Source: Petrotoga mobilis SJ95 (GTDB lineage Bacteria > Thermotogota > Thermotogae > Petrotogales > Petrotogaceae). Taken from it: 64,000 nucleotides of DNA. Under the pieces are notes generated by a model. The model made no database searches. It was not told where the DNA came from and saw nothing but the letters and a program-made list of their open reading frames with translations. Each line of letters opens with the position of its first letter. The stretch's first letter is position 1. Positions 8,426 to 11,804 of the stretch are shown in pieces. Location of the stretch: positions 1,712,501-1,776,500 of the forward strand of contig NC_010003.1 of NCBI RefSeq assembly GCF_000018605.1. Direction: 5' to 3'. The translations under genes and the position numbers were made by a program.

Positions 8426-9603
8426 TGCCAAATAGTGACAAAGTGATCTTAAAAGTTGAAAATTTGAAAAAATATTTTCCTGTTAGAGCCGGGGTCTTCA
8501 AAAGAACAGTCGCCCAAGTGCTAGCTGTAGACGATATTAGTTTTGAAATAAAAGAAGGCGAAACTCTGGGGCTTGTTGGTGAGTCCGGTTGTGGTAAAAG
8601 TACAACAGGCATGACAATCCTGAGATTATACGAACCAACAGATGGACGAATTATAATGGAGGAACAAGACACTACACCATGGTTCATGAAAGGTACCACC
8701 GTTAATAAGTATGTTAAGAAGATTTATTCAGACAGATTTGAAAAAATGAAAAAAGAATTAGGTTCAGAAGAAGAAGTAATTAAGAAATTAGATAATCAAA
8801 TAGACAAAAAATACGCACAGTTATATTTTCAAAACGGAGTAAGTGAAATAAGAAAAGATTTGTTGAATAATTTGGCTGAAAAAAGACGATCCTTTAGAAA
8901 AAATGCCCAAGTCATCTTTCAAGACCCCTATTCTTCCTTAAATCCAAGAATGAGAGTTCTGGATATCATAGGAGAAGGTATGAAAGTTAATAAAATGGGT
9001 ACAGCTTCTGAAATAAGAGATAGAGTAGCTAACTTAATGGAAACAGTAGGATTATCGAAAGATTATGTTTATAGGTATCCCCACCAATTTTCTGGTGGAC
9101 AAAGGCAAAGAGTAGGGATAGCGCGTGCTTTGGCATTGGACCCAAAATTAATCATTTCTGATGAAGCAGTTTCCGCTTTAGATGTTTCCATTCAATCTCA
9201 GATAATAAATTTAATGGTTGACTTGAAAAATGATTACGGTTTAACCTATGTTTTTATAGCTCACGATTTGGCCGTTGTGAAGCACATAAGCGACAGAATA
9301 GCGGTTATGTATCTAGGAAAGATAGCTGAATTAACAACGAAAAAAGAGCTCTTTGATGAGCCATTACACCCTTATACGGTTTCTTTGATGTCGGCAATTC
9401 CTATACCAGATCCGGAAGTGAAAAAGAAAAGAGTGGTTTTACAAGGTGATGTACCAAGCCCTCTAAATCCACCCTCGGGTTGTAGATTTCATCCTCGTTG
9501 TCCAATTGCTAAAGATATTTGTAGCAAAGAAGAACCACCACTTAAAGAAGTTAAGCCAGGACATTTTGTATCATGTCATTTTCCTGGTGAGTTTAAAATT
9601 TAA
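8425..9603 (+). CDS. Peptide ABC transporter ATPase (DppF/OppF type) with coiled-coil insert
   Basis: A 392-residue ATPase with Walker [24 protein letters not shown], signature QFSGGQRQR, Walker [13 protein letters not shown] and the C-terminal cysteine motif (GCRFHPRCP). Most OppF proteins are near 320-330 residues. Here about 70 charged residues are inserted between the Walker A region and the Q-loop (about 77-165), likely a helical hairpin. GTG 8425 overlaps the TAG of the previous gene by one base, implying coupled translation. Confidence 0.9.
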
Positions 9604-9629
9604 AAGCTTGGGTTTTACCCAAGCTTTTA
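9601..9629. terminator. Bidirectional terminator between convergent genes
   Basis: AAAAGCTTGGG and CCCAAGCTTTT form an 11-bp stem around TTTTA. The A/T-rich outer ends give a T tract on both strands, suiting the peptide operon from the left and the RseC-like gene from the right. Confidence 0.85.
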
Positions 9630-9635
9630 AATACT

Positions 9636-10091
9636 TTAGATTTCTCCTTTTTCGTGCAACTTTAGATCTATTTTCTTCTCTAACTTTTGTAGTATGACTG
9701 GTAAGTATCTGTCTTTTAATTTTTTTCTATCGTACTGATGAATTAAAAAATAAGTAATTCCCAATCCTAAAATGCCAGCCAAGAAAGAGAAGATATCTGA
9801 AAAGCCCAAAGTATAGAGAATGGAAACTATAGACAAGAAAACTATTAAAGGAATCCCATAAGCTAAAAAAGAAAGTTTCACTACTGGAACTTCAGGTAAT
9901 TCTACAACTACTTTATCTCCTTTTTTTACATCGACTTTTTCGATGTTTTTAGCTTTTAAATTTAGTTCGTTTGCCCCACCTAATAGGGTACAGCCACCTT
10001 TCATTGCACAGCTTTCACATTCTTGCGTTCGTGTGGTTCTCAAATACACGTAACTTTCGTCTTTATCGATAACATCCATTACTTCCCTCAT
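9636..10091 (-). CDS. RseC/MucC-family membrane protein
   Basis: This 151-residue protein has an N-terminal cytoplasmic part with the RseC cysteine cluster (QECESCAMKGGC, about 24-35), two closely spaced membrane helices (about 74-116) and a charged tail. In Proteobacteria RseC acts positively in sigma-E control and in the SoxR-reducing system; outside them it often sits with Rnf genes, not here. The ATG overlaps the thrB stop, with GGAGGTAATAA before it. It is the last gene of a sigma factor-led cluster, which may be meaningful. Confidence 0.75.
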   Translation of the reverse strand: MREVMDVIDKDESYVYLRTTRTQECESCAMKGGCTLLGGANELNLKAKNIEKVDVKKGDKVVVELPEVPVVKLSFLAYGIPLIVFLSIVSILYTLGFSDIFSFLAGILGLGITYFLIHQYDRKKLKDRYLPVILQKLEKKIDLKLHEKGEI

Positions 10092-10986
10092 CGTTTATTA
10101 CCTCCAATCCATTATGACATACGTCCAAAACCGTTACTTTATAACCTTGATCAAAGTGAGAAAGAAAATTAACCATCTCATCTTCTATATTTTTATAATC
10201 TCCGTCCAAAATTCCCATGATTGTTGGCCCAGAACCACTCAAAAAATACCCCTTTGTACCTATTTTCATCAATTTAGATGTTATTTCTTCCCAGTAGGGG
10301 ATAAAATCTTTACGATATGGCTGATGAATTTTATCTTTCGTGGCTTCTGACAAATTTTCAAAATGGGAGGTTACAAGCGAGGCTACGAGAAGACCAACTC
10401 TGCTTATATTAAACACCGCATCTTCAATGGGCACATTTTTTGGTAAAAGTGAACGAGCTTTTTTGGTAGAAAAATGAAAATCGGGGATAATTGCCAATAA
10501 TTTCAACTGAGTTGGTAAATCCATTTTTACATACTTAACTTCTTTTTCCAACAAACTTCCTACTGTCAATCCTCCAACGAATGCAGGTAGAATATTATCC
10601 GTATGTCCATCCATTGTAGCTGCTAAATATATTATCTCTTCTTTCTTCAAAGGATTATTAAGCAGTTCGTTGGCAACTACTAAGCCTCCGACTATACAGG
10701 CTGCGCTACTTCCCAAACCTCTTGCTATGGGTATATTATTTATAAGATTTATGCGAAGACCCTTCGGATGAATATTTACTGCGTCAAACAATCGTTTCAT
10801 CGCCTGATAAACTAAATTATGCTCATTAGTTTCTATATATGCTTGATCTTCAACCGGAATATTAATTTCTAGGCCAAAGTTTATTTCTTCTACTTCTATG
10901 ATATTGTACAATTGTAAGGCTATCCCTAAACTGTCAAATCCTGGTCCTATGTTGGCAGTTGTGGCTGGAACTTTGACTCTTATCAT
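10063..10986 (-). CDS. thrB: Homoserine kinase
   Basis: A 307-residue GHMP kinase that phosphorylates L-homoserine with ATP in threonine synthesis. The start MIRVKVPATTANIGPGFDSLG is typical, and the ATP loop is IARGLGSSAACIVGG (about 89-103). The C-terminal GHMP motif appears as SGSGPTIMGI. It lies 24 bp after the small ORF that follows the sigma factor and overlaps the RseC-like gene by 29 bases. No other threonine gene is in the window. Confidence 0.92.
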   Translation of the reverse strand: MIRVKVPATTANIGPGFDSLGIALQLYNIIEVEEINFGLEINIPVEDQAYIETNEHNLVYQAMKRLFDAVNIHPKGLRINLINNIPIARGLGSSAACIVGGLVVANELLNNPLKKEEIIYLAATMDGHTDNILPAFVGGLTVGSLLEKEVKYVKMDLPTQLKLLAIIPDFHFSTKKARSLLPKNVPIEDAVFNISRVGLLVASLVTSHFENLSEATKDKIHQPYRKDFIPYWEEITSKLMKIGTKGYFLSGSGPTIMGILDGDYKNIEDEMVNFLSHFDQGYKVTVLDVCHNGLEVINDEGSNGCYR

Positions 10987-11010: not shown

Positions 11011-11187
11011 TTATCCAAGATTAAGTTTGTTTTTAACATTGTTGATAACAGAGTTTTCGCAGGAAAAATATGTTTTTATAATGCCCCTATATATATCGAT
11101 CATTTTCTTGCAATTTTCGTTCAACTCATCTTCCTTGATTTTCCCCTCAAAAAAATCGTTCAACAATTCTTCTTCTTTTTCGTTCAT
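11011..11187 (-). CDS. 58-residue small protein coupled to the ECF sigma factor, possible anti-sigma or regulator
   Basis: The minus-strand ATG at 11187-11185 overlaps the sigma factor's TGA (ATGA). A strong ribosome site, AGAGGAGG, lies just upstream inside the sigma gene. It encodes MNEKEEELLN...NKLNLG, 58 residues, acidic at the N-terminus and without a membrane segment. Two cysteines (Cys26, Cys43) occur, but not the HxxxCxxC zinc motif of classical ZAS anti-sigma factors. Position and coupling suggest a partner of the sigma factor. No family was recognised, so function is inference only. Confidence 0.65.
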   Translation of the reverse strand: MNEKEEELLNDFFEGKIKEDELNENCKKMIDIYRGIIKTYFSCENSVINNVKNKLNLG

Positions 11188-11744
11188 ACTAAGTTGGCCT
11201 CCTCTATGAATTGTCGCAATTTTTTTCTCGCATAATGCAGCTTACTTTTTACAGTCCCTAAAGGGATTTCCATTATCTCAGCAATTTCATTGTAACTCAT
11301 ACCATCGATATCTCTTAACTTAATCAGTAGTCTTTCTTCCTTGTCTAGTTTTTCCATTATATTTAAAATCATTTGGTAATCAAGCTCTTCTAGTACTTCA
11401 TTTTTTACATTTGTATTGGAGATTGCTTGTATATTAGGATTTTGATCCGTTTCATCTTCAAAATCCACAGAAGTTTCTTTGCTTCGTTGATATTTGCGAG
11501 AATAATTTTTTCCCACATTGACAGCTATTCTGTAAATCCAAGTAGACAATTTGGAAAGGCCTTTAAATCCATTTATTCCTTTAATAATTCTTATAAACAC
11601 CTCTTGAAGTGCATCTTCTATTTCATCATGGTTAACGTAATTTTTTAAAACCCCATAAATTTTTGGTGCATACTCTTCGTATAATTTTTTAAACGCATCG
11701 GGATCATTTTTTTTAAGATCTTCAATGAATTTTTCTTCTATCAA
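11184..11744 (-). CDS. ECF-type RNA polymerase sigma factor
   Basis: This 186-residue protein has only sigma regions 2 and 4. Region 2 includes the core-binding stretch DALQEVFIRIIKGINGF and the -10-reading STWIYRIAVNVGKNYSR. Region 4 has a clear helix-turn-helix: MSYNEIAEIMEIPLGTVKSK then LHYARKKLRQFI. It should direct RNA polymerase to a small regulon. The cluster continues with a 58-residue ORF, thrB and an RseC-like gene. On the minus strand a TATAAT (11783-11778) lies about 35 bp before the start, with no good -35; instead a large palindrome begins about 20 bp upstream. Confidence 0.9.
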   Translation of the reverse strand: MIEEKFIEDLKKNDPDAFKKLYEEYAPKIYGVLKNYVNHDEIEDALQEVFIRIIKGINGFKGLSKLSTWIYRIAVNVGKNYSRKYQRSKETSVDFEDETDQNPNIQAISNTNVKNEVLEELDYQMILNIMEKLDKEERLLIKLRDIDGMSYNEIAEIMEIPLGTVKSKLHYARKKLRQFIEEANLV

Positions 11745-11804
11745 TTTGACTCTCTCCTATAATAAATTGTTCATTTTATTATACCATAAATTGTTAGGGC
11801 GATT

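What the first reader, a model, noticed from the sequence alone, without database searches (positions are those of the whole stretch)
11011..11744. ECF sigma factor with an overlapping 58-residue ORF in the anti-sigma position
The small ORF starts in the sigma stop codon, with a strong ribosome site, and has no zinc motif and no membrane helix. It is too small for a known anti-sigma class. It may be a new minimal sigma regulator, followed by thrB and an RseC-like membrane protein in the same cluster.
Basis: partly seen in the sequence, partly recalled or inferred. Interest (0 to 1): 0.65.

Follow-up and report, generated by a model that had tools for sequence, protein, structure and literature searches.

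The report
Stripped-down anti-sigma protein in Petrotogaceae
The 58-residue protein encoded right after this stress sigma factor is real and conserved, and it is what remains of a membrane anti-sigma factor found across the Thermotogota phylum: its membrane anchor and outer sensor part are gone and only the sigma-binding piece is left, which shows how such a sensor can be reduced to a minimal soluble inhibitor.

Summary
An ECF sigma gene (11184-11744, -) overlaps by ATGA a 58-codon ORF (11011-11187, -) with an AGGAGG ribosome site and no zinc motif or membrane helix. The ORF is a real gene: it sits in the same slot in 16 of 19 family genomes that have this sigma, nowhere else, with dN/dS mostly 0.1-0.3. 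It is not a new class. Its profile matches the N-terminal domain of 95-177-residue membrane anti-sigma factors encoded in the same slot across the phylum (E=8e-10). Those match zinc-type anti-sigma factors (E=1.5e-17), whose profile finds RsiW in the PDB (E=0.0015). In this family the membrane helix, the outer domain and a co-encoded exported protein are lost, and an RseC gene has joined the operon. The contact residues of RseA-RpoE are kept (E/D14, Y33; sigma R144, R173). AlphaFold predicts one short and one long helix; a membrane-type relative has three. Three genomes lost the ORF; they also lack the sigma-type promoter that 84 of 87 others keep. Most likely it is a minimal soluble anti-sigma factor derived from class I. 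Binding and inhibition were not tested, and its signal is unknown. It is a new variant of a known kind.

The parts
11184..11744 (-). ECF sigma factor, 186 aa, TTG start
   Evidence: Pfam regions 2 and 4; orthologues in 97 of 103 phylum genomes; closest solved structure E. coli sigma-E 1or7
11011..11187 (-). 58-aa soluble anti-sigma domain (the small ORF)
   Evidence: Conserved in 16 of 19 family genomes with the sigma; dN/dS mostly 0.1-0.3; homologous to the membrane anti-sigma N-terminus
11198..11203 (-). Ribosome site AGGAGG of the small ORF, 10 nt before its ATG and inside the sigma gene
   Evidence: Read from the sequence; strong sites in nearly all relatives
11745..11773 (-). ECF-type promoter TGAAC-N18-GTCAAA touching the sigma start codon; predicted transcript start about 6 nt inside the sigma gene
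   Evidence: GAAC-N17/18-GTC at 86 of 95 loci against 2.8 in shuffles; position relative to the start codon; coordinates
11778..11783 (-). TATAAT of a probable housekeeping promoter (TGGTATAAT), likely source of sigma mRNA
   Evidence: Read from the sequence and kept in the genus; not called by the consensus scan because its -35 is weak; function inferred
10063..10986 (-). thrB, homoserine kinase; present at this place only in the window's genus
   Evidence: TIGR00191 269 bits; absent from the locus in other genera
9636..10091 (-). RseC/MucC-like membrane protein with a CX2CX5C cluster; beside the sigma in every family genome that has the sigma
   Evidence: PF04246 2.1e-26; positions across the phylum
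9598..9632 (.). Terminator-like hairpin (16 pairs) between rseC and the converging transporter gene; T tail scored on the + strand
   Evidence: 2 found where shuffles give 1.4, so weak by number alone

Best explanation
The small ORF encodes a soluble anti-sigma factor reduced to little more than its two sigma-contacting ends. Shown by computation: it descends from the cytoplasmic N-terminal domain of a single-pass membrane anti-sigma factor of class I that is encoded after this same sigma across the phylum, and it is under purifying selection. Inferred: it is made close to 1:1 with sigma by coupled translation. Its first helix caps region 4 of sigma and the far end of its long second helix covers region 2, so sigma is kept off RNA polymerase. 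Because the membrane anchor and the exported partner are gone, release cannot work by the usual cleavage outside the membrane. It probably depends on breakdown of the inhibitor or on a cytoplasmic or redox cue, perhaps through the RseC-like membrane protein of the same operon.
For: Same slot and overlapping start in 16 of 19 genomes. Profile match to the membrane type E=8.3e-10, membrane type to zinc type E=1.5e-17, zinc type to RsiW 5wuq E=0.0015 and other anti-sigma chains; zf-HC2 1.3e-8 in the zinc type. Purifying selection. RseA D11 and Y36 correspond to D/E14 and Y33, RpoE R149 and R178 to sigma R144 and R173, all kept. AlphaFold: helices 3-13 and 24-54, pLDDT 93. Anchor and exported partner absent from all 21 family genomes. 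The three genomes without the ORF also lack the autoregulatory promoter.
Against: No binding or inhibition data and no complex prediction. Helix 2 and the linker to helix 4, which lets class I domains span both sigma regions, are missing in Petrotoga, so reach to region 2 is not certain. Direct match of the small family to the zinc type is weak (probability 22%) and to solved structures absent, so class I descent rests on the intermediate. Three relatives do without it.
Confidence: 0.74

Rival explanations
1. The ORF is a remnant on its way out: sigma is now controlled only by how much of it is made, and the fragment has little or no inhibitory activity.
For: Reduced in size, and lost without replacement in G006, G008 and G012; G012 keeps a 25-codon ORF in the slot that may be a relic.
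Against: Purifying selection in three genera, a strong ribosome site kept everywhere, key contact residues kept, no broken copies among 16.
Confidence: 0.12
2. The domain still binds sigma but now helps it, as a chaperone or activator-type sigma regulator, or tethers it to RseC at the membrane.
For: RseC is beside this sigma in all 19 family genomes that have it and is missing from the two that lack sigma. Some class I relatives of the FecR type are needed for sigma activity (PMC7406223).
Against: No sequence sign of a changed role; sigma without the ORF persists with RseC in three genomes.
Confidence: 0.1
3. It is an unrelated new small protein that happens to lie after sigma.
For: No Pfam or NCBIfam match; fold searches show no anti-sigma factor.
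Against: Profile and pairwise homology to the anti-sigma factor in the same slot of relatives.
Confidence: 0.04

Closest known systems
Membrane anti-sigma factor encoded after the orthologous sigma in other Thermotogota families (class I, RseA/RsiW type)
   Same: Gene slot, coupled start, LDG-type first helix, tyrosine of helix 3, sequence homology
   Different: Here no membrane helix, no outer domain, no exported partner gene, no break between helices 3 and 4
RseA of E. coli (rpoE-rseABC operon)
   Same: Acid and glycine of helix 1, tyrosine of helix 3, matching sigma arginines; RseC in the operon
   Different: RseA is membrane-bound and released by DegS, RseP and ClpXP (general knowledge); here no anchor and no RseB
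Soluble class I anti-sigma factors such as RsrA and ChrR
   Same: Cytoplasmic, class I descent
   Different: Those named carry zinc and are longer (general knowledge); 72% of soluble class I domains have the zinc motif (PMC7406223); this one has none and only 58 residues
CnrY (class II) and NepR
   Same: Small; CnrY uses two helices to reach regions 4 and 2 of sigma (PMC7406223)
   Different: No sequence link found; CnrY is membrane-bound and NepR works with PhyR (general knowledge; PMC8999054)
CfrX with CmpX (SigX, Pseudomonas aeruginosa)
   Same: Small soluble putative anti-sigma factor with a membrane protein encoded beside it (PMC8999054)
   Different: The membrane protein is a mechanosensitive ion channel, not RseC; homology was not tested

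Membership tests
Class I anti-sigma factors (ASDI) | Sequence homology to the class I anti-sigma domain | tested here: met
   Through intermediates; the direct small-to-zinc comparison is weak
Class I anti-sigma factors (ASDI) | Encoded beside an ECF sigma gene | tested here: met
   Overlapping start in 16 of 16 family genomes that have it
Class I anti-sigma factors (ASDI) | Three-helix bundle plus a fourth helix joined by a flexible linker | tested here: not met
   Model has helices 3-13 and 24-54 only; a membrane-type relative has a separate last helix. Hence filed as a derived variant, not a standard member
Class I anti-sigma factors (ASDI) | Charged contact of helix 1 with sigma region 4 (RseA D11 with RpoE R149 and R178) | tested here: met
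   Residues present on both sides; the contact itself was not modelled
Class I anti-sigma factors (ASDI) | Binds and inhibits its sigma factor | not testable with these tools
   Needs a complex prediction or a bench test
Zinc anti-sigma subgroup (ZAS) | HxxxCxxC motif | tested here: not met
   0 of 17 small-ORF loci (16 genomes, one counted twice) against 13 of 72 of the membrane class
Membrane-bound anti-sigma factors | One membrane helix | tested here: not met
   Hydropathy maximum 0.78 or less in the small class, 1.51 or more in the membrane class
Class II anti-sigma factors (CnrY) | Two helices, homologous to CnrY | tested here: inconclusive
   Two helices predicted; no CnrY hit by profile or by fold
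NepR | Partner switch with a PhyR response regulator | not tested
   PhyR was not searched for in these genomes

The most novel reading that the evidence does not exclude
In the window's genus and in G009 the sigma's own promoter sits across its start codon, so the transcript that sigma drives would begin inside the sigma gene. It would make the minimal anti-sigma factor and RseC but no sigma. Together with a two-helix inhibitor derived from a class I domain, this would be an ECF circuit turned from self-amplifying to self-limiting once its membrane sensor was lost, with RseC as the new input.
Probability: 0.25. Interest if true: 0.68.

Novelty: new variant of a known kind. Interest (0 to 1): 0.46.

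Why it matters
One orthologous sigma shows all the stages within one phylum: zinc membrane anti-sigma factor, zinc-free membrane anti-sigma factor, soluble two-helix remnant, none. The autoregulatory promoter is missing in the lineages without an inhibitor. That makes the published idea that soluble anti-sigma factors arise by truncation testable with natural intermediates, and it could give a very small, heat-stable sigma-inhibitor pair.

Tried and rejected
Pfam and NCBIfam scans of the small ORF: nothing. PDB profile of the small family alone: only coiled-coil chance hits. Foldseek and VIA-align with the two-helix model: no useful match. Regulon search in the genus with TGAACN{17,18}GTCWWA: counts like the reversed control, so no regulon can be read from it. 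Calling the exported partner RseB was rejected: no Pfam or PDB link to RseB. Loss of RseC in G011 because of loss of Rnf was rejected: G011 keeps Rnf-type genes. Folding of the window's sigma leader as RNA: not significant, z 0.05. Rfam: nothing. Plasmid collection: nothing.

Full report
OBSERVATION. The sigma gene (11184-11744, -) and the 58-codon ORF (11011-11187, -) are as described, with an ATGA overlap and AGGAGG at 11198-11203. The window lies in a single-contig genome of 2,169,548 bases; from memory this is the size of Petrotoga mobilis SJ95.

CONSERVATION. The sigma search hits 97 of 103 phylum genomes. I oriented 95 sigma loci and read the next gene in each. In the window's family (f1, taken as Petrotogaceae) a 58-69 aa ORF follows sigma in 16 of the 19 genomes that have this sigma, always with an overlapping start. 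A profile of these 16 (A1) finds no other copy with E below 0.02. dN/dS is mostly 0.1-0.3 and below 0.32 throughout. G006, G008 and G012 have sigma followed by RseC; G012 has a 25-codon ORF in the gap that may be a relic. The tree of sigma does not settle whether these three losses are one or several events. G011 and G015 show neither sigma nor RseC; G015 is 94% complete with 6% contamination, so its absence is less sure.

WHAT IT IS. In the sister family f2 (Kosmotogaceae) and in the other families the same slot holds a 95-177 aa protein with one membrane helix, followed by an exported protein of about 240-370 aa. In 13 of 72 of these the zinc motif HxxxCxxC is present, with Pfam zf-HC2 at 1.3e-8 in one. 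The small family matches the N-terminus of the zinc-free membrane type (E=8.3e-10; one pair by BLASTP at E=2e-7), that type matches the zinc type (E=1.5e-17), and the zinc type finds RsiW and other anti-sigma chains in the PDB. So the ORF is a class I anti-sigma domain cut free of its membrane part. The exported partner is absent from all 21 family genomes and present in 15 of 17 genomes of the sister family. A site-2-type M50 protease is present everywhere and therefore says nothing.

STRUCTURE AND CONTACTS. AlphaFold of the window protein, with rows from the window and from related-loci loci, gives helices 3-13 and 24-54, pLDDT 93. The membrane-type domain of L100 gives helices 3-10, 21-41 and 47-63, with a break at its YKPS linker, at lower confidence, pLDDT 76. 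In Petrotoga helix 2 and the linker are thus gone and helices 3 and 4 run on as one. This resembles the two-helix layout of class II CnrY (PMC7406223), but by descent it is class I. The helix-1 contact of class I complexes, RseA D11 with RpoE R149 and R178, where D11H abolishes RseA activity (PMC7406223), has its residues kept on both sides: D or E at position 14 in all 16 sequences, and sigma R144 and R173. RseA Y36, a specificity position, corresponds to invariant Y33. The numbering of RpoE was taken from chain 1or7_A less its three extra residues. The same arginines are also kept in sigmas without the ORF, so the sigma side is weak evidence by itself.

PROMOTER. GAAC-N17/18-GTC lies near the start of sigma in 86 of 95 loci, against 2.8 in shuffles (that count allows spacers of 14-20). 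By genome, 84 of 87 with an anti-sigma factor have it and 0 of 3 without (Fisher p=0.00017, not corrected for relatedness). In the window's genus and in G009 the -10 element touches the sigma start codon, so a transcript from it would start about 6 nt inside the sigma gene and could serve the small ORF, thrB and rseC but not sigma. One genome of the genus (L005) has a one-base change in the motif and the two g3 genomes lack it. The transcript start is a prediction from typical ECF promoter spacing, not a measurement.

MECHANISM. Shown: descent, conservation, selection, loss of anchor and exported partner, kept contact residues. Inferred: binding, inhibition, near 1:1 synthesis by coupling. Unknown: the signal. 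RseC is the obvious candidate partner because it is next to this sigma in every family genome that has the sigma and elsewhere in the genomes of the rest of the phylum. In E. coli RseC has a cytoplasmic cysteine cluster and acts in SoxR reduction (PMC11729352, abstract), and the window RseC carries CX2CX5C. The near-invariant Cys43 of the small protein fits a redox idea but is only suggestive.

NOVELTY. Soluble anti-sigma factors by truncation are known in principle (PMC8103513); [quoted passage not shown] A zinc-free, 58-residue, two-helix derivative with its ancestral stages preserved in one phylum is a new variant of that kind. No paper on this system was found in the library held, which lacks most subscription journals.

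Noticed in passing
L009-L015 (genus g6, probably Marinitoga), upstream of sigma: A hairpin CCTCTT-n-TGTGG ... CCACAAAGAGG covers the ribosome site of sigma, with TATAAT in its loop and the ECF promoter upstream. RNA folding z is -3.5 to -5.5 in the three leaders that span it. The long sigma-driven transcript might hide the sigma ribosome site while the short one does not.
   Followed up: partly
L064-L095 (family f9) and L041, L046, L048, L050, L054 (family f10): The ECF promoter lies inside the predicted sigma reading frame (predicted transcript start 27-97 nt after the best start codon), so sigma-less autoregulated transcripts may have arisen more than once. Start codons there are uncertain.
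   Followed up: partly
L001 against L002 and L005, sigma and small ORF: The sigma genes of the window genome and G004 are 99% identical in DNA but their small ORFs only 88%, while the small ORF of G004 is 99% identical to that of G002: a likely recombination breakpoint between the two genes.
   Followed up: no
L181 (G003), motif at 1501: An ECF-type site TGAAC-N17-GTCTAA lies upstream of what reads as the main sigma gene rpoD. Not checked in the other genomes; it could be chance.
   Followed up: no
G010, G014, G016-G020 (genus g6): A second RseC-like gene or fragment is present besides the one in the sigma operon; in G016, G018 and G020 it scores as partial.
   Followed up: no
L033 (G033) and family f9 loci such as L076, L077, L095: Membrane anti-sigma factors that lack the N-terminal LDG helix and keep only the later helices and the membrane helix: reduction from the other end.
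   Followed up: no
window 9598-9632: A strong 16-pair hairpin lies between rseC and the converging ABC transporter gene and may end both transcripts.
   Followed up: no
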